15,544 nt of DNA, from the NCBI GenBank assembly GCA_947305045.1, contig CAMZCW010000033.1, positions 1 to 15,544 of the forward strand, in the 5' to 3' direction. Shown here piece after piece: positions 1-14,761 of this stretch. The notes beneath the pieces were generated by a model that saw only the letters and a program-made list of their open reading frames with translations, did not search any database and had not been told where the DNA came from. The position numbers were made by a program, and so were the translations under genes. The stretch's first letter is position 1. Every line of letters starts with the position of its first letter. The DNA is from an uncultured Bacteroidales bacterium (GTDB lineage Bacteria; Bacteroidota; Bacteroidia; Bacteroidales; UBA932).

Positions 1-1265
1 TTGTTCTTGACGGAGCCCGTCAGGTAGGTAAGACATACATCCTCAAAGAGTTTGGAAAAAAGGAGTACAAAACGCTCTCCTATGTAAACCTGGACAAAGA
101 TGCCGTGGCCAAGTCCATCTTCGAGCCAGACCACGACATACCGCGTATTCTTCGCACTCTATCCGCCCATACCGGCGTAGACATTGTGCCGAAGGATACT
201 CTCATCGTCATAGACGAGATTCAGGAAAGCGCCGCCGCCCTCGGCTGTCTCAAATACTTCAAGGAAGACTTCCCGCAGTACGACGTCGCCGTCGCCGGTT
301 CGCTGCTGGGTATCTCCATCCACGAAGACCAGTCTTTCCCGGTCGGCATGGTGGAACTGGTCCGAATGTTCCCGATGTCCCTGCACGAGTTCCTGAACGC
401 CACCGGAAATGAGAAACTCACGCAGCTCCTCCTCAGCTGTGGCTGGCCCGCCGTAAACACCCTTAGCCAGAAGTATATTGACCTCCTGCTCCAATACTAC
501 TACGTTGGTGGCATGCCCGAGGCCGTATCCGGCTATATCGAAGGGAAAGGCCTCAATGCCGTTCGCATGATCCAGAAAGATATCCTTGCTGGATACCGCA
601 AGGACTTCTCCAAACACGCACCCAAGAAAGAGGTTCCCCGCATCGAGATGGTCTGGGACTCCCTGCCATCGCATTTGGCCAAGGAAAACAAGAAATTCAT
701 CTACGGCGCCGTTCGAAAAGGTGGCAGGGCCAAAGACTTTGAAGTGGCCATCACCTGGCTCAAGGATGCCGGTCTCATCTACAAAATCCACCGCGTCTCC
801 AAGATCGAGTACCCGCTCAAATTCTACGAAGATTTCGATGTTTTCAAGGTATTCCCTCTGGATGTCGGCCTTCTTGGCGCTATGACTGATGTCCCGGCCT
901 CCCAGATGCTGGTTGGTGACAACATTTTCAAGGAATTCAAGGGCGCGTTCACAGAGTGCTACGTGAACGAACAACTGGCCCGCATCCAAATCCCCACATT
1001 CTACCACTCATCCAATGAGTCAGAATGCGAGATGGATTTCGCCGTCCAGACAGAAAAAAGAGTCATCCCAATAGAAGCCAAGGCTGAAGAAAACGTCAAG
1101 GGCAAATCACTTAAGACCTACATTGACGAACATCCCGCCCTCAAAGGCCTCCGCGTCTCGATGAAGAACTACATTGACCAAGGTTGGATGGAGAATCTTC
1201 CGCTCTACGCAATTGAAGGGTATCTTCGTGCAGAGGGTATTCCGGTGCCCGAACAGGGTGAATAA
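1..1265 (+). CDS. AAA_14/DUF4143 family ATPase, 5' end outside the window
   Basis: This is the 3' part of a P-loop ATPase of the AAA_14 plus DUF4143 type; the open frame enters from the left edge (first full codon at base 3) and about 420 residues are visible. The first visible residues hold the Walker A loop GARQVGKT. About 60 residues later comes the Walker B strand TLIVIDEIQES, then the sensor-like strand VAVAGSLLG. The C-terminal domain ends with a PD-(D/E)XK-like core, ECEMDFAV followed by PIEAKAEENVKGKS (E..DF...E.K). The family is widespread in Bacteroidetes and archaea and its biological role is not firmly known; nuclease activity is only suggested by the motif. A GTG at 105 is not the start, because the Walker A lies upstream of it in the same frame. 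The gene converges with the peptidase gene at 1288 with a 22-bp gap. A second, divergent member of the same family lies at 13490-14761. Confidence 0.9.
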   Translation, partial: VLDGARQVGKTYILKEFGKKEYKTLSYVNLDKDAVAKSIFEPDHDIPRILRTLSAHTGVDIVPKDTLIVIDEIQESAAALGCLKYFKEDFPQYDVAVAGSLLGISIHEDQSFPVGMVELVRMFPMSLHEFLNATGNEKLTQLLLSCGWPAVNTLSQKYIDLLLQYYYVGGMPEAVSGYIEGKGLNAVRMIQKDILAGYRKDFSKHAPKKEVPRIEMVWDSLPSHLAKENKKFIYGAVRKGGRAKDFEVAITWLKDAGLIYKIHRVSKIEYPLKFYEDFDVFKVFPLDVGLLGAMTDVPASQMLVGDNIFKEFKGAFTECYVNEQLARIQIPTFYHSSNESECEMDFAVQTEKRVIPIEAKAEENVKGKSLKTYIDEHPALKGLRVSMKNYIDQGWMENLPLYAIEGYLRAEGIPVPEQGE

Positions 1266-1287
1266 CAGTTCGAGCTACCATAGAAGT

Positions 1288-2310
1288 CTATCGCAAAAGA
1301 AGCGGTCCGGCAGAGTAAACGGCGTCTGCTATAGCCTCTTCCACCAAGCAGGCCGAAAGGGCGCCCACGGCATTCAGGTTGGCCGGAACTTTTTCTTCAT
1401 CAGGTCCGACGGAGATGGCATAAACGGTGTCTCCATCGGCCGTTGTAAAGGCGGGACTTATACTTCTTGCAAGGCCGGCCGATGCCATCTGGGAGAGGTG
1501 CTTGAGCTGGGCAGGGGTGAAGTCCCCGTTGGTGAATATGGCAACAAGAGTGGTATTGGTGGTGCCGGAGGGGGTGCTGATAAACAGATTCTCTTCGGCC
1601 GTTTGCAGCAGCGTCGTGTAAGAATCGGCCTCGTCGGATTGCATTCCTGCTATTTTCTTTCCCCGGTAAAAGATATCTCCATAACTATTGAGGACCACTG
1701 CCACTCCTATCTGGAGGGGACCCATCTGAACGGCGGCATACCCGATGCCGGCTTTCTGGGCCAGGGCTATACCGGCCGCCTTTCCTACGGTGGCACCTGT
1801 TCCAGAGCCTACGCTGCCGCTGAGGGGGTTATTTGCTGTAAAAGACGCCTCGCAGGCCGCATAGCCCATTTTCTCGTCCGGGCGAACGGTGGCGCTTCGA
1901 TACCCCAGGTCATAGATGCAACTCTGGCACACGAGGGGTACCAGGGCGCTTCCGGTCTCGTATCCCACACCGTGCTCTTCTAGGCAGCGCACTACGCCGC
2001 CCGATGCCGCCAGGCCATAGGCCGAACCTCCCGAGAAGACCAGGGCGTTGATGGGGTGGTTCCGTTCTACGGCAATCACTTCCGTTTCCCTGGAAGCCGG
2101 ACCGCCGCCGAAAATTTCTACTGCGGCACGTCCCGGTACCGTCAGGCGAAACACCGTCACGCCCGTTCCAGCCGCATCATCCTGCGCGTTTCCAACGCTG
2201 ACTCCCCGAATATCCGAGAAGGGGATGGTCTTCAGGTTGGAAACTTGTCCCTGTGCCATTAGCGCCGATGCCAGCAGTACTCCAAAAAAGGTCGAAAGAA
2301 TTTGTTTCAT
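1288..2310 (-). CDS. P1 family (S58/DmpA-NylC-like) peptidase, exported
   Basis: A 340-residue protein of the P1/S58 family, whose known members (DmpA aminopeptidase, NylC oligomer hydrolase) are autoprocessing Ntn-hydrolase-like amidases. A signal peptide is evident: a positive N-terminus, a hydrophobic stretch over about residues 4-18 and a likely cleavage near ALMA/QG at 19-20, so the enzyme is probably periplasmic. Family hallmarks are the glycine-rich segments FSGGSAYGL (92-100) and GSVGSGTGATVGK (165-177). The sequence TTNTTLVAIFTN (250-261) matches the self-cleavage region of NylC. By analogy Asn252-Thr253 would be the scissile bond and Thr253 the nucleophile; this is inference. Its substrate cannot be told from sequence. 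A -7 element TATCTTTG lies on the minus strand at 2341-2334, about 24 bp before the ATG. Confidence 0.85.
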   Translation of the reverse strand: MKQILSTFFGVLLASALMAQGQVSNLKTIPFSDIRGVSVGNAQDDAAGTGVTVFRLTVPGRAAVEIFGGGPASRETEVIAVERNHPINALVFSGGSAYGLAASGGVVRCLEEHGVGYETGSALVPLVCQSCIYDLGYRSATVRPDEKMGYAACEASFTANNPLSGSVGSGTGATVGKAAGIALAQKAGIGYAAVQMGPLQIGVAVVLNSYGDIFYRGKKIAGMQSDEADSYTTLLQTAEENLFISTPSGTTNTTLVAIFTNGDFTPAQLKHLSQMASAGLARSISPAFTTADGDTVYAISVGPDEEKVPANLNAVGALSACLVEEAIADAVYSAGPLLLR

Positions 2311-2333
2311 AGCGAGTATGTTGTATAATGTGA

Positions 2334-2341
2334 CAAAGATA
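2334..2341 (-). promoter_or_regulatory. -7 element of the P1 peptidase gene
   Basis: Read on the minus strand the bases are TATCTTTG, a perfect match to the Bacteroidetes -7 consensus TAnnTTTG. They lie about 24 bp before the ATG at 2310. I see no convincing TTTG -33 element at the usual 19-21 bp spacing, so this promoter may be weak or may need an activator. Confidence 0.55.
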
Positions 2342-2370
2342 CGAATTTGTCAGAAATGTGGCTGCGCCCG

Positions 2371-2390
2371 AAAAACTTTCACCTAAAGTT
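2371..2390 (-). terminator. weak Rho-independent terminator after the integrase remnant
   Basis: On the minus strand a perfect 6-bp stem AACTTT/AAAGTT (2374-2379 with 2385-2390, 5-nt loop) runs into five T residues in all (the last two bases of the stem plus three more). It follows the stop codon of the recombinase remnant by 28 bp. The stem is AT-rich, so its strength is uncertain. Confidence 0.4.
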
Positions 2391-2417
2391 CTGCCGATGT
2401 TCATTACCTTCCACCTT

Positions 2418-2639
2418 CTACTCATCGTCTTCCGGCGGTTCCAGGGTTTTGTCAAACTGCTCCATGGCTTGGGCTTTGTCGGCCGCGGCAATGTCTATGT
2501 AGGGTTTCATGGACTGGTAGTCGCTGTGGCCGGTCCACCGTATGACCATAACGGGCGGGATGCCGATGGACAATGCGTAGCAAATGAAGGTTTTGCGGAT
2601 GGGCTCGCGTTGAACTGACGGCGAAGGAATGCGCGCCAT
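2418..2639 (-). pseudogene. tyrosine recombinase 3' remnant
   Basis: This 73-codon frame encodes the C-terminal end of a tyrosine recombinase closely related in sequence to the intact one at 7208-8611. It keeps RKTFICYALS, RWTGHSDYQSMKPYI (the second His/Trp-region histidine and the catalytic Tyr) and an acidic tail. The equivalents in the intact enzyme are RKTFICFALS and QWTGHSDYESMKPYI. The His of the HxxR box is replaced (EPIR for HAAR). The Arg I and Lys boxes and the whole N-terminal part are absent: upstream the frame meets a stop just before the ATG at 2639. The 100 bp between it and orf196 (2640-2739) show no recognisable gene in any frame. The DNA differs from the intact copy at many positions, so this is a relic of a related element, not a recent duplication. 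Confidence 0.8.
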
Positions 2640-2739
2640 CTACAGACCGTCCTGAACCCCGTGGATGTGGAACGATTTTGCATCAAGAAACACACCGGTG
2701 GGATTTACCGAATAGGCGCCTTGAAGCGGTAGGGGATGG

Positions 2740-3330
2740 CTATTCCCACTCTACGTAAATTGTGCTGAGAGGTATTCTGCGAGGGTGGCCGTTTGAGCCT
2801 TGAACCTTATAGATGGGGGACTGTTCTTTTCCCAGAATCTCCTCCAGCCTCTTGTTCAAGTTGGTGAGCTTTTCGCTGAAGGAATTGTCCAAAGGGGAGA
2901 GCAGGCGAACCATGCGTTGCTCCCGCACGGTTTCACTAGTCTCAGGAGAGATAAGGGCATAAATGGACGAGATTTCATCGGCATAATTGGCCCTGTCCTT
3001 CAGGCAGATACCTTCCGGATGACGCAGGAAGAAGATGAAAATGGTTTTTAACAGAGGCTGGAGCGGAAGCTCAATACCTCCGATGCGGATGTCATATTTT
3101 TTGCCGATATGGACGACGGTGGGCTCTCCGGAATGGTCTTCATCGGCCTCCATGCCCCTGGCTGCCAGGGTCTCACGGATTCTGCCCATAAGGTTGAACA
3201 GATCCCTGGCTTCCAGCAACTCCAGCGCTTCGTAAGCATACGGGGAGCCTCCCTCCTCCAGGCAGTTATTTCCCTCTCCAGTGAGCAGCGTCCATACAAG
3301 CCGTGCCTCTATGCCGATGTGTTCAATCAT
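2740..3330 (-). CDS. Bacteroidales protein of unknown function coupled to hicB (orf196)
   Basis: A 196-residue soluble protein without signal peptide or membrane segment. The ATG at 3330 is chosen because it lies one base after the hicB stop (TGATATG), giving tight translational coupling; a TTG at 3339 would overlap hicB. Residues 1-60 look helical. The second half has a conserved feel: a hydrophobic run, LRHPEGICLKDRANYADEI (102-120), a Ser/Thr/Glu-rich linker, and NSFSEKLTNLNKRLEEI then a basic stretch HPRRIPLSTIYVEW near the end. I recall similar LRHPEGI-type C-terminal regions in uncharacterised Bacteroidetes proteins, possibly of winged-helix type, but cannot name the family. Its position as third gene of a toxin-antitoxin operon suggests a role in regulating or extending the HicAB module; this is inference. 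Confidence 0.75.
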   Translation of the reverse strand: MIEHIGIEARLVWTLLTGEGNNCLEEGGSPYAYEALELLEARDLFNLMGRIRETLAARGMEADEDHSGEPTVVHIGKKYDIRIGGIELPLQPLLKTIFIFFLRHPEGICLKDRANYADEISSIYALISPETSETVREQRMVRLLSPLDNSFSEKLTNLNKRLEEILGKEQSPIYKVQGSNGHPRRIPLSTIYVEWE

Positions 3331-3331
3331 A

Positions 3332-3730
3332 TCAAGCAAATTTTAATGCCGTGAGTTCTCCTGCAAACCGCTCTACGCCTTCCTGTATTTTGTGAATGGT
3401 TTTTTGTGAAGGTTTTCTTCTCCCGTGCAAAAAGTGTCCCAGCTGGGCCTGGCTAATACCTGTAATCCTTTCCAATCCCGCTAAACTGAATGCTTTGCAA
3501 TACTCTGAAAGAAAGCTTGCTACATCATAATAAAACTCAAAAGAGGTTTCTTGAAAAGGAAGGCCTTCTTGTAAGTAATAGGATTTGATCTCCTCATAAG
3601 AATCATTAAAATCTGCAATGGCTTCCTGCACGGTTTTCCCCTCACCGATACAGCTATAATCAAGCTTATTCGCCTCTGTGTAAGCCGAAAAACCATATGT
3701 AGAAATCTCGATGAATACTTTGGTTTTCAT
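3332..3730 (-). CDS. hicB: HicB family antitoxin with C-terminal helix-turn-helix
   Basis: A 132-residue antitoxin that should neutralise HicA and repress its own operon. The N-terminal half (about 1-65) has the partly degraded RNase-H-like HicB fold, with the typical GEGKTVQEAIADFNDSYEEI segment (29-48). Residues about 78-120 form an XRE-type helix-turn-helix, with LERITGISQAQLGHFLHGRR (86-105) as the recognition region. The DNA-binding C-terminus fits autoregulation, and a palindrome suited to it lies at 3962-3976 beside the operon promoter. The order is hicA then hicB with a 3-bp gap, as is usual. It is followed after one base by orf196. Confidence 0.88.
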   Translation of the reverse strand: MKTKVFIEISTYGFSAYTEANKLDYSCIGEGKTVQEAIADFNDSYEEIKSYYLQEGLPFQETSFEFYYDVASFLSEYCKAFSLAGLERITGISQAQLGHFLHGRRKPSQKTIHKIQEGVERFAGELTALKFA

Positions 3731-3733
3731 ATC

Positions 3734-3919
3734 CTATAATTTAACACCTGACACTCTTTCTATAGCCTTCTTTGTTCCGGGGGCTACTTCTTCAGACTCA
3801 TGGTGACTTGTCTGAAAACGATTCCCTGTAATGGGGCTAAACCACCAAGGGTGTCTGTTCGTATCAATCTGATAACAACCGGCTCTTCTTAGTTTCCGGT
3901 GCAATTCGGAGTATTTCAT
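3734..3919 (-). CDS. hicA: HicA family mRNA-interferase toxin
   Basis: A 61-residue toxin of the HicA type, a small double-stranded-RNA-binding-fold ribonuclease that cleaves mRNA in a translation-independent way. The protein starts MKYSELHRKLRRAGCY, has the basic RHPWWFSP segment that carries the family's catalytic His (His23 here), and ends with the HHESEEVAPGTKKAI region typical of HicA C-termini. The ATG at 3919 is chosen over an in-frame TTG at 3934, because the TTG lies inside the -7 promoter element (3932-3939). It heads the hicA-hicB-orf196 operon. Confidence 0.88.
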   Translation of the reverse strand: MKYSELHRKLRRAGCYQIDTNRHPWWFSPITGNRFQTSHHESEEVAPGTKKAIERVSGVKL

Positions 3920-3931
3920 ATACCCAGCGAG

Positions 3932-3963
3932 CAAATGTAGGAAATTTCTTACAAAACGCCAAA
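3932..3963 (-). promoter_or_regulatory. hicAB-orf196 promoter
   Basis: On the minus strand TTTG (3963-3960), a 20-bp spacer and TACATTTG (3939-3932) match the Bacteroidetes consensus. The predicted transcription start is only a few bases before the hicA ATG at 3919. The promoter overlaps the end region of the upstream 480-aa gene, so the toxin operon can be transcribed independently. Confidence 0.7.
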
Positions 3964-3976
3964 TGTAAATTACATT
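3962..3976. promoter_or_regulatory. palindromic operator candidate of hicAB
   Basis: AATGTAA-A-TTACATT is a perfect inverted repeat (7-bp arms, one central base). It overlaps the -33 element of the hicAB promoter and contains the stop codon of the 480-aa gene (3970-3972). The octamer CAAATGTA recurs 28 bp away at 3932-3939 and 3960-3967. HicB antitoxins with helix-turn-helix domains repress from such inverted repeats, so this is the likely HicB operator. Confidence 0.6.
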
Positions 3977-5412
3977 ATTTGCAAAGCCATTAACACCGCT
4001 TCATTGTAGGTGCGGAAGCGAAGATTACTATGCCCATAAGGATAATAGCCATTTGTGTCAAAGCGTATGTCAAAACAGATAATGAGGTTATTGTGAGCCA
4101 ATTGCAGTAATTCACCAACTGTTTTGGACTCGGTGGAGGGATATTTTTGATAAACAGGATGTTCAAGAGGAACGGGCATGTCTATTGCTACGTCAGGGAC
4201 TGGTAGCCATTCTGCATTCTGAATGAGAGCTTCTCTCTGCTCAAGTGTCATATTGCCATCGATCCCGCACATGTGTCTTTCCGGGAGGGACGTGCAAGTT
4301 CCTTCTTTCGGGCCTATGGCAGACCTCCAGTCTGAGTCTCCATACAGCAGGACACAATCCTTTTCCTCCAGGATGGCAAGTATTTTATCTGCATCCTGGA
4401 CCAGAAGGGGAGCGCCGGCATCGTAAAGGGCAACCATTATATCCATAACTTCATTCAGTCGGAAATAGGTATCGTAACTTAAATAGAACATCCACCCCCT
4501 GGGAGTGTAGTACTTTGTTGCCCGAAGCCTGGCCGTATAGCATTTCAGTTCTCCAAAATGATCTGTATGTGCAAATCTTCTAAAGGATTTCTCGCTGTCC
4601 AGCCTAAGATGAGACGGAATTTGATAGATATTGCCCTGGCGGTAGAAATCCAGGTTCTCTTTGTTGTAGTCAAGATAATCCCGCAGATGACTTTCGGCAA
4701 GGCAGGCAATTTTGTAATAATGACAGTAATCACGAATTGTCATCTTTCCAAGAGGCTCCCTGGGGTGCTCAATGATTTCTTTCAGAACCGTTTGGGCTCT
4801 TTCCGGATCCTTTGGATGAATCCTGTTTTCTGGGCAAATCTTATTATAATACGCCCGGGGGATGCGACCCATCCGTTGCCGATAATCAAGTCCATCAGCA
4901 ACCTTATTATTGTAGTTTGCTACATTGTTGAGCATCTCTCCGACCGTTACCCGGATGATTTGAAGGAGTTCCGTCGTAAACCATTCGAAATCTGCGAACG
5001 ACCTGTCGTCAGTACTATTGTGGTAACTCTTTATTGAACAATAATGTCCGGCGCCATCAGAAATGATCAGGAGATGTCCCTGATGATAGCAGGATGTTTC
5101 TACAAAGAACCATCGGCCTTTGTCGGGATAATGCTCCCGCCACTTTTTCAGGTAATCCTCTTTATGCTCGATGACACCCTCATCCAAGGCTTCCTGTCTT
5201 GTATACCATGCCGATGGCAAGCCCCTGTGAACATATATCCACAGGCCCCTGCGATTATCATCGCCTATGGGCGCCAATACCTGCATACGTTCTTCAATAT
5301 CAATTAAATCATGAAGAGCCTGCCTCTCTACAACTATACTTCTCCATCCTCCGAACATAAGCCAGTCCAGCATTGGAAGATTCACCGCCTTGTAATGCTT
5401 TTTCATTGTCAT
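3970..5412 (-). CDS. unknown 480-aa protein divergent from metallophosphoesterases
   Basis: I do not recognise this 480-residue protein. It has no signal peptide, no obvious membrane segment, no P-loop and no nuclease motif that I can identify. It is rich in Tyr, Trp and His. The N-terminal third (1-175) reads as a mixed alpha/beta region. A helical, charged middle (about 180-275, with RIPRAYYNKICPENRIHPKD and MTIRDYCHYYKIACLAESHL) follows. The C-terminal half contains Tyr/Arg-rich strands and an acidic stretch at 340-375. The start may be the ATG at 5412 or the second ATG at 5406; the promoter lies so close (-7 element at 5430-5423) that the leader is about 7-13 nt. Base composition is more AT-rich than the flanking chromosomal genes. 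Twin operators tie its expression to the phosphoesterases on the other side of the intergenic region. Confidence 0.8.
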   Translation of the reverse strand: MTMKKHYKAVNLPMLDWLMFGGWRSIVVERQALHDLIDIEERMQVLAPIGDDNRRGLWIYVHRGLPSAWYTRQEALDEGVIEHKEDYLKKWREHYPDKGRWFFVETSCYHQGHLLIISDGAGHYCSIKSYHNSTDDRSFADFEWFTTELLQIIRVTVGEMLNNVANYNNKVADGLDYRQRMGRIPRAYYNKICPENRIHPKDPERAQTVLKEIIEHPREPLGKMTIRDYCHYYKIACLAESHLRDYLDYNKENLDFYRQGNIYQIPSHLRLDSEKSFRRFAHTDHFGELKCYTARLRATKYYTPRGWMFYLSYDTYFRLNEVMDIMVALYDAGAPLLVQDADKILAILEEKDCVLLYGDSDWRSAIGPKEGTCTSLPERHMCGIDGNMTLEQREALIQNAEWLPVPDVAIDMPVPLEHPVYQKYPSTESKTVGELLQLAHNNLIICFDIRFDTNGYYPYGHSNLRFRTYNEAVLMALQIM

Positions 5413-5422
5413 TTCTTTTTTA

Positions 5423-5454
5423 CAAAAATCCGCAGAAAAACCGACCTGGTCAAA
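5423..5454 (-). promoter_or_regulatory. promoter of the 480-aa gene
   Basis: On the minus strand TTTG (5454-5451), a 20-bp spacer and GATTTTTG (5430-5423) resemble the Bacteroidetes promoter, with G in place of T at the first position of the -7 element. The same deviation occurs in the divergent promoter at 5546-5576. It sits right next to the palindrome at 5455-5474. Confidence 0.6.
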
Positions 5455-5474
5455 CGATTACAAGCTTGTATTCG
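5455..5474. promoter_or_regulatory. operator copy 1, near-perfect 20-bp palindrome
   Basis: CGATTACAAGCTTGTATTCG is a palindrome with a single mismatched pair (5458/5471); the perfect core is TACAAGCTTGTA at 5459-5470. Its centre (5464.5) lies 41.5 bp from the last base of the -7 element of the 480-aa gene. It belongs to a longer direct repeat (5455-5486 with 5525-5556, 26 of 32 positions identical). Confidence 0.7.
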
Positions 5475-5524
5475 TTTGTATTTCTCATAACTATTCCTAT
5501 AGCAATACTATCGGCAAATCCAAG

Positions 5525-5544
5525 CGATTACAAGCTTGTAATTG
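5525..5544. promoter_or_regulatory. operator copy 2, 16-bp perfect palindrome
   Basis: ATTACAAGCTTGTAAT (5527-5542) is a perfect palindrome with the same core as copy 1, 70 bp away. Its centre (5534.5) lies 41.5 bp from the last base of the -7 element of the metallophosphoesterase operon, exactly the same geometry as copy 1 to its own promoter. A dimeric regulator binding both sites is the natural reading; which regulator is unknown. Confidence 0.7.
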
Positions 5545-5545
5545 G

Positions 5546-5576
5546 TTTTATTTCTGCGCCATTCACGCGATATTTG
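5546..5576 (+). promoter_or_regulatory. promoter of the metallophosphoesterase operon
   Basis: TTTT (5546-5549), 19 bp, then GATATTTG (5569-5576) resembles the Bacteroidetes promoter, with a degenerate -33 and the first -7 base G in place of T. The ATG at 5594 follows by 17 bp. Confidence 0.5.
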
Positions 5577-5593
5577 CAGAAAACGAGAGACTT

Positions 5594-6361
5594 ATGACTA
5601 TTCAATATGCATCGGACCTGCATCTGGAATTTGCAGACAACCGGGAATTCGTGGAAAGGGGAGGGCTCACGCCGGTAGGGGATATCCTGGTCCTGGCCGG
5701 AGATGTTTCCTACCTTGGAGACCACAAGATGATGAAGCGACCTTTCTTTGACTGGTGCGCGGAGCATTTCCGACAGACCTATATCGTCCCGGGCAACCAT
5801 GAGTTTTACCATGGATATGATATCGCCTTGACTATGGAGGACTTTGAGTTCGCCTATAGGAAGAATGTACGCTACTTAAATAATAAAAGTGTGGTAGAAG
5901 GGGATACGGAGCTCTTTTTTACCACCTTATGGACCCGGATCAATCCCGTCTATTATTGGCAGATCCAACGTGGCATGAACGATTTCAAACACGGAAAGTA
6001 TGAGGGCGCCCGCCTGAATGCCAATGATGTGGATGCTCTGCATAGCCGAAGTCTGGAGTGGCTGCAAAAGGCGCTTGCGGCATCATCGGCCACCAGAAAG
6101 GTGGTGGTTACCCATCATTGTCCCACCCTCCGTCCAGATTTCAACGGCTACCCGGGCGGGGCGCTGAATTCGGCCTTCCAGGTGGACTTGGACGCGTTTA
6201 TTGAATCGGCCCATATCGATTACTGGATATACGGGCATACGCACTTTGCCGGCGGCTCAGGAAGCAGGATAGGGGAGACCACCCTCCTTTGCAACCAGCT
6301 GGGCTATGTCTTCAGCAACGAGCATTCGGCCTTTAATCGTCACGCTTTTATCGACCTATGA
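5594..6361 (+). CDS. calcineurin-like metallophosphoesterase, 255 aa
   Basis: A two-metal phosphoesterase of the calcineurin-like superfamily with every core motif in order: SDLHLEF (metal ligands D8 and H10), LAGDV (D37), PGNHEFY (N68, H69), VVTHHCPT (H174/H175) and YGHTHFAG (H215, H217). It is about 255 residues long with no signal peptide, so it is cytoplasmic. Such enzymes hydrolyse phosphomono- or diesters, including cyclic and linear nucleotides, and the substrate cannot be read from sequence. Its stop overlaps the start of the next phosphoesterase by four bases (ATGA, 6358-6361), so the two are translationally coupled. It is transcribed divergently from the 480-aa gene with matching operators. 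Confidence 0.9.
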   Translation: MTIQYASDLHLEFADNREFVERGGLTPVGDILVLAGDVSYLGDHKMMKRPFFDWCAEHFRQTYIVPGNHEFYHGYDIALTMEDFEFAYRKNVRYLNNKSVVEGDTELFFTTLWTRINPVYYWQIQRGMNDFKHGKYEGARLNANDVDALHSRSLEWLQKALAASSATRKVVVTHHCPTLRPDFNGYPGGALNSAFQVDLDAFIESAHIDYWIYGHTHFAGGSGSRIGETTLLCNQLGYVFSNEHSAFNRHAFIDL

Positions 6362-6987
6362 ACCAGATTTATTTTACGGCCGATCTGCACTTCGGACATG
6401 CAAATATCCTCAAGCATTCTCCCCGGCGGCCTTTTGCCGATGTTGTTGACATTCAGGCGCATGATGAATGGCTGCTGGACAAATGGCGCTCAACCGTTGA
6501 CAAGCGGGATACGGTATATGTTCTGGGGGACCTTACCTTCCTCAAGAGTGAAGACGCCCGCCATCTGCTGGAAAAGCTTCCCGGGCAAAAGTTCCTGATT
6601 GAAGGGAATCACGACGGCTCCATCCGCGCCTATAAAAACTATTTCCGGGAGGTGTACCAGATTAAGGAGATGGTTTTCAAGCCCACTGTAGCGCCTTTCC
6701 TAAAAGAGGATTTGCAGGTTGTTATGTGTCATTATCCCATGGTTACCTGGAACAGAAAGCCTTATGGCTCCATCATGCTCCACGGGCATTGCCACGGGAA
6801 ACTGGACGGGCATAATGCCCAGTCCATGGATCTTCGTTTCGACGTGGGCATTGACGGCACACTGGCCAATCTGGAATTCCTTACCCTGGAGGACATCTAT
6901 AACGCTGCCACAGAAAAAATCAGCCAGTACAAATGCAACAACTTTGCAGAGTATGCGAGGAACAATTACCGGTCGGCGGTGATGTAA
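6358..6987 (+). CDS. calcineurin-like metallophosphoesterase, 209 aa
   Basis: A second, shorter phosphoesterase of a different subfamily from its neighbour. Motifs are ADLHFGH (D9, H11, H14), VLGDLTF (D58), IEGNHDG (N84, H85), VMCHYPM (H125) and LHGHCHG (H144, H146), followed by a DVGID segment near 162-166. The DLHFGH plus GHCHG form is common among small phage- and plasmid-associated phosphoesterases. The last 30 residues (helical, Lys/Asn-rich) extend beyond the core fold. Two unlike phosphoesterases in one coupled operon suggest sequential or dual-substrate action on one phosphorylated compound or nucleic-acid end; this is inference. No terminator is visible after the stop. Confidence 0.88.
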   Translation: MNQIYFTADLHFGHANILKHSPRRPFADVVDIQAHDEWLLDKWRSTVDKRDTVYVLGDLTFLKSEDARHLLEKLPGQKFLIEGNHDGSIRAYKNYFREVYQIKEMVFKPTVAPFLKEDLQVVMCHYPMVTWNRKPYGSIMLHGHCHGKLDGHNAQSMDLRFDVGIDGTLANLEFLTLEDIYNAATEKISQYKCNNFAEYARNNYRSAVM

Positions 6988-7021
6988 AACCGATGATAAT
7001 GAAAAAGCGCTGGGAGAGTAG

Positions 7022-7072
7022 ATTTCGATAATTTTGCCCAAATAGCCAACTGAATTTCAACAATTTTACCCA
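7022..7072 (+). repeat. imperfect direct repeat upstream of the recombinase gene
   Basis: Two 19-bp copies (7022-7040 and 7054-7072) share ATTTC-A-AATTTT-CCCA with three mismatches and are offset by 32 bp, about three helical turns. The first copy contains TAATTTTG (7029-7036), a perfect -7 match but without a visible -33. Possible roles are a recombinase arm site or an operator. Confidence 0.4.
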
Positions 7073-7124
7073 TTGGAGCACAAAAACTGCTCTGAAAATA
7101 GAAGAAAACCTCCTACATTTTTCC

Positions 7125-7154
7125 ATCGGCCTCTCACCACCCTGAGGGGCCGAT
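7125..7154. promoter_or_regulatory. hairpin-forming inverted repeat in the recombinase leader
   Basis: An 11-bp stem (7125-7135 with 7144-7154; ATCGGCC then CTC, one G-U pair, 8-nt loop) lies 53 bp before the recombinase ATG. No T-run follows on either strand, so it is not a standard terminator. The 220-bp gap between the phosphoesterase and the recombinase otherwise holds only the direct repeat at 7022-7072. Confidence 0.45.
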
Positions 7155-7207
7155 ACGGATAATTGTTCAGATTTTACTAAACTCGCATTTCTTTTTAAAT
7201 AATTATT

Positions 7208-8611
7208 ATGGAAATGCCTGTAAAATTTTATCTTTCGCACACGGCCAACCTCAATGGAGAGCGTCGCATCAGAGTGTCTGTCAGTATCTTAGGAGAACGT
7301 TATCTTACAACCGCCGGATTTCATATCGGCCCGGAACAGTGGATTTCCAATGCGCCGGATGAATCTCCGCTCCACACACTAAAAAATGTTTGGGTAATAC
7401 CCGGCACGCAAAATTCGGAGGGGATTGATGCCGATGTCATCAATGCCCGCCTTGGGAAAATTGTGGCTCATTTCCGGGAGTATTCGTTGATCTGCCGGGC
7501 AAAACCCACGCAGGAACAGTTCCACCGGGAATTCCTGATTGCCATCGGCCGGATGTCCTTGGAGCCCGAACCGGACTCTGTGAGCATCTACGACCGTTTC
7601 CGTGAATTCATGCGGGAAGAAAACATCCATCAGGAGTGGGAAATGGAGACGTATAAGGCGGTGAAAACCACGTATTCCCATCTGCTCGCGTTTGGCCAGG
7701 CGCACACGCTCAATTACTTCAACGAGGATGGAATCAACCGCTATGTCCAGTATCTGCGGGGGCGGGAAATGGAGGACGTGAGCGTTCTCAAACAGCTGAA
7801 AAACCTCCTCTGGTTCATCAATTGGGCCATTCGGAAGGGATATACCACCGAGCGGACCATCCAGACTTATCGGCCCAAACTGAAGGTGGTGGACAAGCCG
7901 GTCATCTTCCTTACGCCGGAAGAACTCATGCGGCTGTACCACTACCGCATCCCCGAGGCTGGAACAGAGGTGGAGCTGTCCAATTCCTATGGCCGACTCT
8001 ACAAAAAGAAGGTCGAAAGCCGCTTTGCCATGGAAGTTTCGCGAGACATCTTCTGCTTCTGCTCATTCTCGTCCCTGCGTTTTGGAGACGTGACCAAGTT
8101 GCGGTGGACCGACATCCAGAACGGCGTAATGACAATCACGACTTACAAGACGCACGATCGTCTTCCCATTGAACTTACGCCTTTCTCACAGGCACTTCTG
8201 GACAAATATCGATGCTGTGAATTTCCTGATTATCTGGTATTTCCGCCTATCTCTAACCAAGAGATGAACCGAAGCCTGAAGGACCTGTGCGAACTGTGCG
8301 GGATCAATTCTCCTGTACATATTACCTGCTACCGGAACGGTCGGCGCGAAGACAAGGTGTACCAGAAGTTCCAGAGGATTGGCACCCACGCTGCCCGAAA
8401 GACATTCATCTGCTTTGCCCTTTCCAACGGCGTTCCGCCAGACGTGGTGATGCAGTGGACCGGCCACAGTGACTACGAGTCCATGAAGCCCTACATCGCC
8501 ATCAGCGACCAAACCCGCTCCAACGCCATGAAGAAACTGGGGGAGCAGTGGAAGAAGTATAATGCCGATGAAGACACGCAGGACGATGGGGAGGACGAGG
8601 TGGAAGTATAG
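7208..8611 (+). CDS. tyrosine-type site-specific recombinase/integrase
   Basis: A 467-residue integrase of the Bacteroidetes phage-integrase type. The N-terminal arm-binding and core-binding (SAM-like) regions cover about 1-225, and the catalytic domain about 235-450. Active-site residues are all present: Arg291 (SSLRFGDV), Lys314 (TTYKTHDRLP), His394-x-x-Arg397 (THAARKT), His420 (WTGHSDY) and the nucleophile Tyr429 (ESMKPYI). The tail from about 452 is strongly acidic. The ATG at 7208 is used; an in-frame ATG at 7214 is equally possible. It ends 219 bp from the 3' end of tRNA-Phe, a classic place for an island integrase. A degenerate relative lies at 2418-2639 in opposite orientation. It probably moved the block between them, but this is not proven by visible att sites. 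Confidence 0.92.
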   Translation: MEMPVKFYLSHTANLNGERRIRVSVSILGERYLTTAGFHIGPEQWISNAPDESPLHTLKNVWVIPGTQNSEGIDADVINARLGKIVAHFREYSLICRAKPTQEQFHREFLIAIGRMSLEPEPDSVSIYDRFREFMREENIHQEWEMETYKAVKTTYSHLLAFGQAHTLNYFNEDGINRYVQYLRGREMEDVSVLKQLKNLLWFINWAIRKGYTTERTIQTYRPKLKVVDKPVIFLTPEELMRLYHYRIPEAGTEVELSNSYGRLYKKKVESRFAMEVSRDIFCFCSFSSLRFGDVTKLRWTDIQNGVMTITTYKTHDRLPIELTPFSQALLDKYRCCEFPDYLVFPPISNQEMNRSLKDLCELCGINSPVHITCYRNGRREDKVYQKFQRIGTHAARKTFICFALSNGVPPDVVMQWTGHSDYESMKPYIAISDQTRSNAMKKLGEQWKKYNADEDTQDDGEDEVEV

Positions 8612-8722
8612 CGCCCAGCCGCGCCCCTGTTTCATCACAGGCCTACACTGCGGTTATCGTCCCACCATCTGGACCCATGACAGCACTTTTTTTATAATAT
8701 AGAGCCGGACAAACGAGTCCTT

Positions 8723-8766
8723 GCATTGAGCCCCGTCTTCGCATTGAGCCGGTTTTGCATTGAACC
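8723..8766. repeat. three GCATTGAGCC iterons between integrase and tRNA-Phe
   Basis: GCATTGAGCC occurs at 8723-8732 and 8741-8750, and as GCATTGAACC at 8757-8766, all in one orientation with 18- and 16-bp periods. A further direct repeat ACTGTGTAC/ACTGTGCAC follows at 8775-8783 and 8787-8795. The remaining bases of the 219-bp gap show nothing else I can interpret. Arm-type integrase sites are a reasonable guess. Confidence 0.5.
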
Positions 8767-8802
8767 AATACGTCACTGTGTACGAAACTGTGCACAAAAT
8801 AA

Positions 8803-8829
8803 ATAAGCCGCTGATTTTCAGCGGCTTAT
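8803..8829 (-). terminator. Rho-independent terminator of tRNA-Phe
   Basis: A perfect 12-bp stem (8803-8814 with 8818-8829, ATAAGCCGCTGA) with a 3-nt loop lies one base after the tRNA 3' end. On the minus strand it is followed by the T-rich tail TTATTTTG. Confidence 0.85.
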
Positions 8830-8830
8830 G

Positions 8831-8903
8831 TGGTGCTGGGAAGAATCGAACTGCCGACACATGGATTTTCAGTCCATTGCTCTACCATCTGAGCTACAGC
8901 ACC
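8831..8903 (-). tRNA. tRNA-Phe (GAA)
   Basis: A complete 73-nt cloverleaf on the minus strand. The acceptor stem GGTGCTG/CAGCACC is perfect and followed by discriminator A; CCA is not encoded. The D arm is GCTC/GAGC, the anticodon arm ATGGA-CTGAAAA-TCCAT with anticodon GAA, and the T loop TTCGATT. The T stem GGCAG/CTTCC has one C-U mismatch (51-63), which is unusual. It has its own perfect promoter (8919-8949) and terminator (8803-8829). Confidence 0.95.
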
Positions 8904-8918
8904 ATCGTTTTGGGATTG

Positions 8919-8949
8919 CAAAGATAAGGCTTTTTTTAGAAACTGCAAA
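8919..8949 (-). promoter_or_regulatory. tRNA-Phe promoter
   Basis: On the minus strand TTTG (8949-8946), exactly 19 bp, then TATCTTTG (8926-8919) match the Bacteroidetes consensus perfectly. The mature tRNA 5' end is 16 bp downstream. It is back to back with the Nudix promoter. Confidence 0.85.
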
Positions 8950-8959
8950 CTTTTTTTGC

Positions 8960-8967
8960 TAACTTTG
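8960..8967 (+). promoter_or_regulatory. -7 element of the Nudix gene
   Basis: TAACTTTG is a perfect -7 match, 15 bp before the ATG at 8983. The -33 region (T-run ending near 8937) is only T-rich. Confidence 0.6.
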
Positions 8968-8982
8968 GAAAAATTTTAAGAT

Positions 8983-9540
8983 ATGGCGCTCATCCCAGAA
9001 GATAAAACCCGGCGTTGGAAGATTCTCTCCACCGAATACCTCATCCGCAGACCGTGGCTTACGGCCCGGAGGGACCAGGTGCAACTGCCGGACGGACGCG
9101 TGAATCCGGAATATTATGTGGTGGAGTACCCGGACTGGGTGAATGTGATTGCCATCACCACAGATGGGAAATTCGTGATGGAGCGGCAGTACAGGCATGC
9201 CGTGGCCATGACCTGCTACGAACTGCCATGTGGCGTTATGGAGGCAGGGGAGACGCCCCTGCTGGCTGCTCAGCGGGAACTGCTGGAAGAAACCGGCTAT
9301 GGGAAAGGGGAGTGGAAGGAGATTATGACGCTCACCCCCAACCCCAGTTCCATGTCCAACTTTACGCACTGTTTCCTGGCAACCGGCGTCGAGCCCGTAG
9401 GCCCCACGCATCTGGATGCTACCGAGGAACTGGAAGTGCATCTGCTGGAACGGGAGGAGGTGCTCACACTGCTGCGGGAGAACCGGCTCATTCAGTCGCT
9501 CATGATTTCCCCGCTGCTCAAGTATTTCTCCGGCATTTAG
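8983..9540 (+). CDS. Nudix hydrolase, ADP-ribose-pyrophosphatase-like
   Basis: A 185-residue Nudix hydrolase. The Nudix box is complete at 84-106, GVMEAGE then RELLEETGY (G-x5-E-x7-REUxEExGU), which binds the divalent metals and cleaves nucleoside diphosphates linked to another moiety. The preceding region, with MERQYRHAVAMTCYELPCG (66-84), is like the ADP-ribose/nucleotide-sugar pyrophosphatase branch (NudF-like), so ADP-ribose or a nucleotide sugar is the likely substrate. Exact substrate is uncertain. The last four bases overlap the 3' end of the convergent mntP. Confidence 0.88.
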   Translation: MALIPEDKTRRWKILSTEYLIRRPWLTARRDQVQLPDGRVNPEYYVVEYPDWVNVIAITTDGKFVMERQYRHAVAMTCYELPCGVMEAGETPLLAAQRELLEETGYGKGEWKEIMTLTPNPSSMSNFTHCFLATGVEPVGPTHLDATEELEVHLLEREEVLTLLRENRLIQSLMISPLLKYFSGI

Positions 9541-10106
9541 GCCCCCAGGTGCTCGATCAGGATTCTGACGCCTATTCCCAGTAAAATAAGCCCGCCCAGC
9601 AGTTCCGGGCGCACTTTCCGGTTCACGGCATCTCCAAAACGGACGCCGATGGAAAAGCCCAAAAGGCTCATACCAAAAGAAACCACGCCGATCCATACCA
9701 GCGGCATCGTCAATTGCGCCAGCGTATTGTACCCTGTGCAGGCATAGGAAATGCCCACCGCAAGGGCGTCGATGCTGGTTGCCACCGCAAGCACCAGTTG
9801 CGTGCGTAAGTCCCTGGGATTAACGGACTTATCGTCCTCCTCCTTAAACGAATCGGCAATCATTTTTCCGCCGATAAAGGCCAGCATGCCAAAGGCAATC
9901 CAATGATCCACCGCCTGGATATAGGCGCTGAAACGGCTGGTGAGGAACCAGCCGACAAGCGGCATCAGCGCCTGGAAGAGCCCAAAGAAAAAGGCCAGGG
10001 TGAACATGGTGCGGCCTTCGTAGCGGCGGATGATGACGCCGCTGACCACGGACACCGCAAAGCAGTCCATGGCCAGCGCAAAAGCTATAAGCAGCGATTC
10101 AAACAT
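9537..10106 (-). CDS. mntP: manganese efflux pump MntP
   Basis: A 189-residue, six-helix inner-membrane Mn(II) exporter. The two inverted halves each show the family signature: FALAMDCFAVSV (Asp14) and VATSIDALAVGIS (Asp113), with a charged cytoplasmic loop around 84-104 between them. Length matches the family. The ATG overlaps the stop of the upstream gene by one base (TAATG), so it is translated with the TrkA-N/RyR protein from one transcript. I see no yybP-ykoY manganese riboswitch upstream, so regulation is probably through the upstream promoter at 11739-11769. Confidence 0.92.
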   Translation of the reverse strand: MFESLLIAFALAMDCFAVSVVSGVIIRRYEGRTMFTLAFFFGLFQALMPLVGWFLTSRFSAYIQAVDHWIAFGMLAFIGGKMIADSFKEEDDKSVNPRDLRTQLVLAVATSIDALAVGISYACTGYNTLAQLTMPLVWIGVVSFGMSLLGFSIGVRFGDAVNRKVRPELLGGLILLGIGVRILIEHLGA

Positions 10107-13383: not shown

Positions 13384-13459
13384 TTATCGAAGTTATGCTG
13401 CTTGAATTTTCAATTTTATCGAAGTTTATTATGAATTAAATTTGATTTTTATCGAAGTT
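13384..13459 (+). repeat. three phased TTATCGAAGTT repeats upstream of the ATPase gene
   Basis: The 11-mer TTATCGAAGTT occurs at 13384-13394, 13416-13426 and 13449-13459, with 32- and 33-bp periods (about three helical turns). Copies 2 and 3 share a longer 14-bp identity, TTTTATCGAAGTTT. Copy 3 lies between the -33 and -7 elements of the ATPase promoter, which suits a repressor site. Confidence 0.75.
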
Positions 13460-13471
13460 TGCGTATATTCG
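13441..13471 (+). promoter_or_regulatory. promoter of the second DUF4143 ATPase
   Basis: TTTG (13441-13444), 19 bp, then TATATTCG (13464-13471) matches TTTG-N19-TAnnTTTG with one -7 mismatch. The ATG at 13490 follows by 18 bp, and repeat copy 3 sits in the spacer. Confidence 0.6.
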
Positions 13472-13489
13472 CATTGTAAAAACAACGAT

Positions 13490-14761
13490 ATGATGACCGT
13501 TCAACAGTTACTATCCATCCTTTCTTCGCAGAAAGAGGAACTCGAAGCAAACGACCAGGCCTCCTTTGTGAGCCGCTATGAAGAGCCGCTTATCAACCTT
13601 GAAAGTAAGATGGCCCAGGTTGTTATCGGAGTCAGGCGCAGTGGTAAGTCGACAATATGTGAGAAAATCCTACGTGAGAAAGTGGGGGACTTTGCTTACG
13701 TCAATTTCGACGATGAGCGTCTTGTCTCACTCAAGACAGATGAGCTTGATATCCTTCTCGAGGCATTGTATAGGCTCAATGGAGATTTCAAGTATCTGTT
13801 CCTGGACGAGATTCAGAATATCGACGGGTGGCAACTGTTCGTTAACCGTCTTCTGAGGCAGAAGATTCATATCCTCATAACCGGGTCAAACTCCAAGCTG
13901 CTCAGCAGCGAGCTGATGACACACCTGACTGGCCGGCATAACCGGATCAACCTGTATCCGTTTTCGTTCTCCGAGTATTGCGGAATAACTGGCGTTGATA
14001 CCAAGTCATACTCGACCAGGGCCAGGGCTTTGCGTAAAACCGCTCTAGAAAAGTATATGTCGGATGGCGGGTTCCCAGAACTGATATCTGAGGCGAACCG
14101 CGCCGGATACATCAGCGGCCTGGTAGATGCAATCATCAATACCGATATTGCCAAGCGTTTCAAGATTCGTCACAAAGACGTGCTTAGGCGTATGGCCACC
14201 TATCTGTCGGACAATTACTGCCATGAGTTTGTTGCCAAGAATGTCGCAGAGGAGTTTGGGATATCAGACCATACGGCCGAGAATTACTACTCTTACCTTA
14301 AGCAGGCCTTCTTGCTGATCGGCATCAACAAATTCTCGTTCAAGAGTAAAGACAGGATCCGGAACGAGAAGGTATATGTGGTTGATACATCCCTGGCTAC
14401 AGATAAAGAGGGGACTATCGCCAGCGAGAACCTGGGCTGGCGTCTTGAGAACATCATCTGCGTTGAACTTCTGCGACGTTGCAAACCTCTTTTCCGGGAT
14501 CTGTTCTATTTCAAGACAGCCAGCCACGAAGTTGACTTTGTTGTGTCAGATGGGATGAAGCCCGTTGAACTGATCCAGGTCAGCTATGACATTTCTTCTC
14601 CGAAGACACGAAAAAGGGAAATCAATGGCCTGCTTGCCGGGGCGAAGGCTCTCAAATGTGATAAGCTGACGCTGATTACATTCGACACTGCCGAGACTGT
14701 CACAATGGGAGATAAGACCATTGAGATTGTGCCAGCGATAGACTGGCTCTTCCAGAGATAA
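13490..14761 (+). CDS. AAA_14/DUF4143 family ATPase
   Basis: A complete 423-residue member of the AAA_14 plus DUF4143 family. Walker A is GVRRSGKST (47-55), Walker B YLFLDEIQN (102-110, Asp106/Glu107), and the sensor strand ILITGSNSKLLS follows (128-139). The middle (about 225-300) contains a helical, winged-helix-like part. The C-terminus has a PD-(D/E)XK-like core, HEVDFVVSDG (346-355) and PVELIQVSYD (358-367), in which the usual Lys is replaced by Gln362. That makes catalysis doubtful if the motif assignment is right. The ATG at 13490 is chosen because the promoter lies at 13441-13471; an upstream ATG at 13442 lies inside it. It differs strongly from the ATPase at the left edge, so the two are not recent copies. 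Function of the family is unsettled. Confidence 0.9.
   Translation: MMTVQQLLSILSSQKEELEANDQASFVSRYEEPLINLESKMAQVVIGVRRSGKSTICEKILREKVGDFAYVNFDDERLVSLKTDELDILLEALYRLNGDFKYLFLDEIQNIDGWQLFVNRLLRQKIHILITGSNSKLLSSELMTHLTGRHNRINLYPFSFSEYCGITGVDTKSYSTRARALRKTALEKYMSDGGFPELISEANRAGYISGLVDAIINTDIAKRFKIRHKDVLRRMATYLSDNYCHEFVAKNVAEEFGISDHTAENYYSYLKQAFLLIGINKFSFKSKDRIRNEKVYVVDTSLATDKEGTIASENLGWRLENIICVELLRRCKPLFRDLFYFKTASHEVDFVVSDGMKPVELIQVSYDISSPKTRKREINGLLAGAKALKCDKLTLITFDTAETVTMGDKTIEIVPAIDWLFQR

What the first reader, a model, noticed from the sequence alone, without database searches (positions are those of the whole stretch)
5423..5576. Twin palindromic operators at identical positions in two divergent promoters
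The palindrome core TACAAGCTTGTA occurs twice in the 181-bp intergenic region. Copy 1 is centred at 5464.5, 41.5 bp from the last -7 base (5423) of the leftward promoter. Copy 2 is centred at 5534.5, 41.5 bp from the last -7 base (5576) of the rightward promoter. Both promoters also share the same deviation, GAnnTTTG in place of TAnnTTTG. Equal geometry in two directions is hard to explain by chance and points to one dimeric regulator, perhaps an activator given its place just upstream of -33 and the weak -7 elements. No regulator gene adjacent to the divergon is obvious, apart from HicB and perhaps orf196.
Basis: partly seen in the sequence, partly recalled or inferred. Interest (0 to 1): 0.75.

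Follow-up and report, generated by a model that had tools for sequence, protein, structure and literature searches.

The report
Shared operator-promoter module of defence-type genes
The two matching DNA palindromes are copies of a longer control element that sits at one exact distance from the promoters of many unrelated genes, a good part of them defence or toxin-antitoxin candidates, in a group of rumen-type Bacteroidales, so these genes are probably switched together by a regulator that is still unidentified.

Summary
Both exact palindromes and both 41.5-bp distances are in the sequence. The palindrome is the centre of a longer element, conserved from about -36 to +20, that stands before many unrelated genes in one large Bacteroidales genus. 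Of 40 sites chosen by palindrome score alone (window included), 35 have TTTG at exactly +39 to +42 on a side; the other five have TTTA or TGTG there. In an oriented non-redundant set it is 45 of 52, none one base off. Genes behind it include a metallophosphoesterase, YhcG, RhuM, Bro-N, toxin-antitoxin genes, an Mks/Wadjet-like operon and a small winged-helix family, C0. The window encodes a C0 protein (2740-3339), last gene of the probable leftward operon. I read this as a shared, rigid operator-promoter module of accessory, largely defence-type genes. C0, modelled with an OmpR/PhoB-type DNA-binding fold, is the best candidate regulator but unproven: six site-bearing assemblies lack a detectable C0, and near-identical C0 recognition helices face different operator cores. 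Activator or repressor is undecided. My searches of one open-licence library found no description.

The parts
5438..5491 (.). Operator copy 1 (54-bp span; perfect 12-bp core 5459-5470; 28-bp palindrome 5451-5478 with one mismatched pair). Belongs to the leftward promoter.
   Evidence: Exact core; inverted repeat arms 5451-5464/5465-5478, 93% complementary; profile score 42.6 against 39.9-71.3 for the family sites used to build it.
5508..5561 (.). Operator copy 2 (54-bp span; perfect 12-bp core 5529-5540). Belongs to the rightward promoter.
   Evidence: Exact core; profile score 58.0.
5499..5516 (+). Upstream arm of copy 2 (TATAGCAATACTATCGGC), matching the family's conserved upstream element from about -36 to -19.
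   Evidence: Family column counts. The corresponding stretch of copy 1 matches the family poorly (read).
5423..5430 (-). Leftward -7 box GATTTTTG; -33 position TTTG at 5454-5451.
   Evidence: no mapped transcription start.
5569..5576 (+). Rightward -7 box GATATTTG; -33 position GTTT at 5545-5548.
   Evidence: no mapped transcription start.
3970..5412 (-). 480-aa protein of unknown function, first gene of the probable leftward operon.
   Evidence: No Pfam, NCBIfam, PADLOC or PHROGs match; three close homologues; model of mean pLDDT 83 without a credible Foldseek match.
3734..3934 (-). HicA-like toxin (open frame from TTG; first ATG in frame a few codons later).
   Evidence: Pfam HicA_toxin E 6.5e-5, 23.4 bits, under the curated cut-off of 27.
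3332..3730 (-). HicB-like partner with a C-terminal HTH-looking stretch (identity from position next to hicA and from the sequence, recalled).
   Evidence: No Pfam match; weak PHROGs transcriptional-regulator match, E 0.0043.
2740..3339 (-). C0-family protein (199 aa), candidate regulator, last gene of the probable leftward operon.
   Evidence: Family alignment; model; OmpR/PhoB-type DNA-binding domains as best structural matches. Gaps in the probable operon read.
5594..6361 (+). Metallophosphoesterase, first gene rightward.
   Evidence: Pfam Metallophos 3e-15; PADLOC PDC-S10 6.2e-13, covering residues 25-108.
6358..6987 (+). Second metallophosphoesterase, overlapping the first by 4 bp.
   Evidence: Pfam Metallophos 1.3e-4, just over the cut-off.
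7208..8611 (+). Tyrosine recombinase beside the tRNA gene at 8831-8903; the genes above look like part of an integrated island.
   Evidence: Pfam Phage_integrase 1.7e-8; tRNA. No flanking direct repeat found in 1200-9700.

Best explanation
The twin palindromes are two copies of a long operator-promoter module. Shown by comparison: a nearly invariant symmetric core (AAACGATTACAAG/CTTGTAATCGTTT and close variants), a further conserved arm on the upstream side, a -33 position inside the downstream arm, and a -7 box whose TTTG ends 42 bases from the centre. Shown: the module stands before many unrelated accessory genes, a good part of them defence or toxin-antitoxin candidates, in some genomes clustered in islands. 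Inferred: a dimeric or larger regulator binds it and switches these genes together. Copy 1 drives the leftward unit (480-aa gene, hicA, hicB, C0 gene); copy 2 drives the two metallophosphoesterases. Inferred, less surely: the regulator is a C0 protein with an OmpR/PhoB-type winged helix that also controls its own gene (I give about 0.45 for C0). Slightly favoured but open: the regulator activates by touching RNA polymerase over the -33 position (about 0.55 against 0.45 for repression).
For: Geometry: 35 of 40 sites selected without regard to the promoter, and 30 of 34 after removing near-duplicates, have TTTG at +39 to +42 on at least one side; no side of the 80 has TTTG ending at +33 or from +35 to +41 or at +43. 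Oriented set: 45 of 52, A36 in 51 (promoter side chosen by the TTT signal, so not blind). Span: upstream conservation to -36. Breadth: the 52 promoters face at least fifteen gene families. Defence character: YhcG = PDC-S02, RhuM = PDC-S05, Bro-N = PDC-S13, window metallophosphoesterase = PDC-S10 in PADLOC; seven sites in about 15 kb of L308, one before a DUF3584/MksE operon. Rarity elsewhere: 13 of 121 genomes of the nearest genus have strong sites, none of the 79 genomes of other genera. C0: near the element in 24 of 41 loci, some of them overlapping; its own short form is the commonest target, 15 of 52; C0 genes with a different operator core keep the layout; fold.
Against: No expression or binding data. 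C0: six of nine site-bearing genomes re-searched with the C0 profile have no match (G169, G176, G184, G110, G114, G102; completeness is told for three of them, 81-83%), and G048 (95% complete) has only long paralogues. Association with C0 that is free of linkage is weak: 3 of 7 genomes with unlinked sites against 11 of 114, p 0.03. Short C0 proteins L302 (core TACAAG) and L320 (core GGCAAG) have nearly identical recognition helices. Fold: Foldseek E 0.087 at best; no PDB sequence match to that family. In the window, copy 1 is a weaker family member and the rightward -33 is GTTT. 11 of the 52 targets were not classified and one labelled target, CutC, is not a defence gene. The Wadjet/Mks label rests on Pfam; the direct PADLOC JetC score is weak (E 1.1e-5).
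Confidence: 0.72

Rival explanations
1. Same module, but the regulator is a repressor that hides the -33 element and is released on invasion or damage, as in the described defence-island repressors.
For: The -33 position lies inside the operator in the family. Described regulators of defence islands BrxR and RptR are repressors (abstracts).
Against: The upstream arm is conserved further (to -36) than the downstream one (to about +20), the -7 box is off consensus in 33 of 52, and no one-base spacing variants occur among the 52. These are leanings, not proof; fixed -33/-7 spacing alone could explain the rigidity.
Confidence: 0.4
2. The regulator is not C0 but a host or other protein, for instance an XRE/S24-type repressor or a protein encoded elsewhere; C0 genes are merely frequent targets.
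For: Six site-bearing genomes without detectable C0; C0 recognition helix does not vary with the operator core. A Bacteroidetes SOS regulator binds TTAC-AAATT-GTAA in one species (passages), which resembles the core TTAC-AAGCTT-GTAA but with a spacer of 5, not 6.
Against: Strong sites are in 13 of 121 genomes of the genus only, which is not expected of a core regulator. I did not search the genomes for S24, XRE or WYL regulators.
Confidence: 0.4
3. The palindrome is a recombination or gene-cassette site, by which genes are exchanged behind a common promoter.
For: Same neighbourhood, different genes behind the element: 480-aa gene with hicAB in the window, YhcG in G001; a recombinase is close.
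Against: The element includes promoter parts and faces a gene at one distance in nearly every case. I did not test for sequence breakpoints at the palindrome.
Confidence: 0.06
4. The palindromes are REP/REPIN-like dispersed repeats moved by a RAYT-type transposase; the twin copies are a REPIN doublet.
For: A Y1_Tnp (IS200-like) protein family occurs in 8 of the 41 loci.
Against: Only 1 to 7 places per genome among site-bearing genomes and a fixed place in promoters. A different palindrome in the same genomes looks more REP-like.
Confidence: 0.03
5. Chance: an accidental repeat in AT-rich intergenic DNA.
For: The 12-mer at 2 mismatches alone is not rare enough (8 of 200 shuffles gave two or more matches).
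Against: 0 of 200 and 0 of 20,000 shuffles for the stricter tests, and the whole family.
Confidence: 0.01

Closest known systems
BrxR, WYL-domain regulator of phage-defence islands (PMC9122601: abstract and section list seen)
   Same: One regulator serves a defence island; headings state that BrxR binds inverted repeats and that two binding sites lie in the island.
   Different: Shown to be a repressor; WYL protein, found mostly in Proteobacteria by its headings. Here the operator is far longer, sits in many promoters at one distance to the -7 box, and the candidate regulator is modelled as an OmpR/PhoB-type winged helix.
RptR, repressor of a restriction-modification/DarTG2 island (PMC12255303: abstract and section list seen)
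   Same: Small regulator of a mixed defence and toxin-antitoxin island.
   Different: Minimal site is the 6-bp palindrome TAGCTA in three direct repeats; TAGCTA is absent from the 181-bp region (sequence printed).
Bacteroidetes LexA-like S24 regulators (PMC8565304: passages seen)
   Same: Palindromic operators in the same phylum; a diverged site TTAC-AAATT-GTAA is reported.
   Different: Main motifs CTAA-N5-TTAG and GGA-N5-TCC are absent from the 181-bp region; none of the labelled targets is a classical SOS gene.
Bacteroidetes primary sigma promoters, TAnnTTTG at -7 and TTTG near -33 (PMC7366714: passages seen)
   Same: The module contains a promoter of this type.
   Different: First -7 base is mostly G; the -33 position is part of an operator arm.
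OmpR/PhoB-type DNA-binding domains
   Same: Predicted fold of the C-terminal half of C0. Such proteins often bind over the -35 region as tandem copies (recalled).
   Different: No receiver domain match in C0; no sequence match to such chains in the PDB; the operator here is an inverted repeat.

Membership tests
Bacteroidetes primary sigma promoter | TAnnTTTG at -7 | tested here: met
   TTTG in 45 of 52 and the A in 51 of 52, but first base T in only 19 of 52; both window promoters have GAnnTTTG.
Bacteroidetes primary sigma promoter | TTTG near -33 | tested here: inconclusive
   At +11 to +14: YTTG in most sites, T12 and T13 in 52 of 52, G14 in 37 of 52. Window: TTTG leftward, GTTT rightward.
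BrxR/WYL-regulated defence island | WYL-domain regulator encoded in or near the island | not tested
   No search for WYL proteins was made; the window ORFs scanned with Pfam (10) showed none.
RptR-regulated island | TAGCTA sites in the promoter | tested here: not met
   Absent from the printed 181-bp region.
Bacteroidetes SOS (LexA-like) regulon | CTAA-N5-TTAG or GGA-N5-TCC box | tested here: not met
   Absent from the printed 181-bp region; motifs from passages of PMC8565304.
Bacteroidetes SOS (LexA-like) regulon | Regulator with S24 peptidase domain, autoregulated | not tested
   Genomes were not searched for S24 genes; none of the labelled targets is one, 11 of 52 unlabelled.
OmpR/PhoB-type regulator (for C0) | Winged-helix DNA-binding fold | tested here: met
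OmpR/PhoB-type response regulator (for C0) | Phosphoacceptor receiver domain | tested here: not met
   No Pfam match in the window C0, nor in L178 C0-short or C0-long; N-terminal part of the model is of low confidence.
REP/REPIN element | Many dispersed copies per genome | tested here: not met
   1 to 5 strong places per site-bearing genome of the genus, up to 7 in chosen genomes.

The most novel reading that the evidence does not exclude
These Bacteroidales carry a dedicated defence regulon: a family of small winged-helix regulators without receiver domain (C0), with several versions of one operator design, docks on RNA polymerase at a rigid 42-base offset and switches many unrelated mobile defence and toxin-antitoxin genes in concert; a gene joins the regulon by arriving with, or acquiring, the promoter cassette.
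Probability: 0.33. Interest if true: 0.8.

Novelty: new variant of a known kind. Interest (0 to 1): 0.62.

Why it matters
Little is known of how bacteria co-ordinate the unrelated systems that gather in defence islands. Here one operator design unites at least fifteen gene families in many species, and its fixed distance to the promoter makes it a search handle: a gene of unknown function behind it, such as the 480-aa family, becomes a candidate for defence. It also makes a direct test possible of whether the unnamed C0 proteins are transcription factors.

Tried and rejected
Viral origin: the 16-mer was found in 5 viral stretches and a degenerate 20-mer in 16. The 16 were scored with the profile, and the best score was 17.3 with no -7 box in place; the 5 were among the contexts ranked and none reached the cut. 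One viral contig encodes a distant C0 relative. No DNA match of 5300-5720 in annotated phages; one weak plasmid hit for the 480-aa protein.

Function of the 480-aa protein: no family match and no credible fold match (highest Foldseek probability in the 50 rows shown 0.12). A second-look job was started and not collected.

LexA/SOS was considered because of the TTAC...GTAA core; its boxes are absent.

The 91 genome stretches include many matches outside Bacteroidales that look like chance; 16 fixed bases in 257 billion would give about that many (my estimate, no call). In one search, 19 of 200 genomes passed E 0.01; I treat 6 (G031, G054, G057, G195, G197, G221; at most 21.7 bits) as chance. 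Genomes reached under two handles (for example G001 = G119, G184 = G104) are counted once where I name a number of genomes of the genus; the 27 handles hold one such pair (G184/G104).

Selection: the 40 sites were chosen by arm score 18 or more out of 150 contexts, without the -7 box. The weak copy 1 of L156 (arm score 14) and L184 (16) and L172 (17) fell below the cut. For the oriented set I chose the promoter side by the TTT at +39, and dropped near-duplicates from 58 to 52.

Errors: one search read upstream of L001, L003 and L004 on the wrong strand, repeated. One search failed on a script error and was rerun.

Full report
What is there. The 181 bp between the 480-aa gene (3970-5412, minus) and the metallophosphoesterase gene (5594-6361, plus) hold TACAAGCTTGTA at 5459-5470 and 5529-5540 and nowhere else in the window at up to two mismatches. 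A repeated perfect 12-bp palindrome arose in 0 of 20,000 shuffles of the region. The copies form a 35-nt direct repeat, 86% identical, starts 70 bp apart.

The family. The 16-mer CGATTACAAGCTTGTA occurs in 91 stretches of named genomes. Read side by side, a subset from uncultured Bacteroidales and relatives, many from the rumen, shares far more sequence. Among 150 distinct contexts with the 12-bp core, 40 have flanks that resemble one arm consensus (score 18 or more). Symmetrised, these are conserved to about 26 bp on each side. A variant core, TTCAAGCTTGAA, turned up with the profile.

Fixed geometry. Taking both sides of the 40 sites, TTTG ends at +42 on 37 of 80 sides, 35 sites having it on at least one side; the five others have TTTA (4) or TGTG (1) at that place. 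From +21 to +75 all other offsets together give 51 sides, of which 16 at +32 and 8 at +57. After removal of near-duplicates it is 30 of 34 sites. In a larger set with the variant core, oriented to the promoter and cut from 58 to 52 at 80% identity, 45 have TTTG at +39 to +42 and none at +38 to +41 or +40 to +43; 51 have A at +36; the spacer between the palindrome arm and the -7 box is weakly conserved; conservation runs to -36 upstream but fades after about +20 downstream. The +32 signal lies on the side away from the main promoter, in several loci towards the 200-aa C0 gene, and may be a second promoter that uses the inner CTTG as -33 (my reading).

Genes behind the element. Automatic labels for the 52 promoters: C0-short 15, Bro-N 6, a 197-aa unknown family 3, RhuM 2, Gp49-type toxin 2, a 210-aa HTH-like protein 2, 480-aa family 2, and one each of metallophosphoesterase, YhcG, an MksF/JetA-like protein, a MazE-like protein, a two-gene unit of L011, two AAA proteins, CutC and 200-aa C0; 11 unclassified, two of which start like the Y1_Tnp family (L169, L311). 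YhcG, RhuM, Bro-N and the window's metallophosphoesterase match candidate defence families of PADLOC. L308 has seven operators in about 15 kb; one faces an operon with MksE (1.2e-39) and DUF3584 (1.4e-75) proteins, another a Gp49-type gene. The direct PADLOC score to JetC is weak (1.1e-5), so I call the operon Mks/Wadjet-like, no more.

Distribution. A sequence profile from 42 sites (84 rows, both strands) finds strong sites in 13 of 121 genomes of the nearest genus, one to five each, and in none of the 79 genomes of other genera among the 200 searched; filters were strict. All 27 handles chosen because they hold sites scored, with up to seven places.

Setting in the window. A tRNA gene (8831-8903, minus) and a tyrosine recombinase gene (7208-8611) lie to the right; a fragment at 2418-2639 resembles the recombinase's C-terminus by eye (no Pfam match). 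No direct repeat marks the ends in 1200-9700. The nearest held genome, G001, keeps the C0 gene and both metallophosphoesterases with the element, and has YhcG in place of hicAB and the 480-aa gene. In the window 480-aa gene, hicA, hicB and C0 run in one direction with short gaps, so copy 1 probably drives all four (inference).

Results against C0. Six of nine site-bearing genomes re-searched with the C0 profile have none, and G048 only long paralogues. Over the genus, sites and C0-short go together (9 of 13 against 5 of 108), but mostly because the site is in C0's own promoter; with unlinked sites only it is 3 of 7 against 11 of 114, p 0.03 (the C0 cut of E below 1e-15 is mine). Short C0 proteins with different operator cores have nearly the same recognition helix. 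Another partner or another protein may read the core.

Activator or repressor. The -33 position lies inside the operator: a class II activator would sit there, and so would a repressor. The off-consensus first -7 base in 33 of 52, the longer upstream arm and the lack of one-base variants lean slightly to activation. The two described defence-island regulators nearest in setting are repressors (abstracts). I leave this open.

In print. Searches with the core sequence found nothing. Broader searches on regulation of defence islands gave BrxR and RptR as nearest (listings, with two abstracts read). The library holds open-licence papers only.

Noticed in passing
L204, L309, L317: Another palindromic repeat, AAATCTTTGCAAACCTTGCAAAGATTT-like, looks dispersed in these genomes (seen as DNA in L204 and as KSLQTLQRF in translated frames of L309 and L317); it may be REP-like and go with the Y1_Tnp genes near the islands.
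   Followed up: no
Several loci, for example L021, L042, L055, L178: In C0-short promoters the start codon lies only about 3 to 6 bases after the -7 box, so the mRNA may be nearly leaderless.
   Followed up: no
L308 2878-17697: Seven operators in about 15 kb, six with the TTCAAGCTTGAA core and one with TACAAGCTTGTA, round an Mks/Wadjet-like operon and small unknown genes.
   Followed up: partly
window 3970-5412: The 480-aa family gave a fairly confident model (mean pLDDT 83) but no credible match among solved structures by Foldseek.
   Followed up: partly
window 3-1265 and 13442-14761: Two AAA_14/DUF4143 ATPases lie near the two ends of the window.
   Followed up: no
L315 (G035:C14), about 90 bp before a C0-short gene: The operator has one extra G at its centre (ATTACAAG-G-CTTGTAAT), intermediate between the even and odd operator forms.
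   Followed up: no
L329 (viral contig IMGVR_UViG_3300028914_003078): A distant C0 relative, 35% identical over residues 89-199, lies on a contig held as viral.
   Followed up: no
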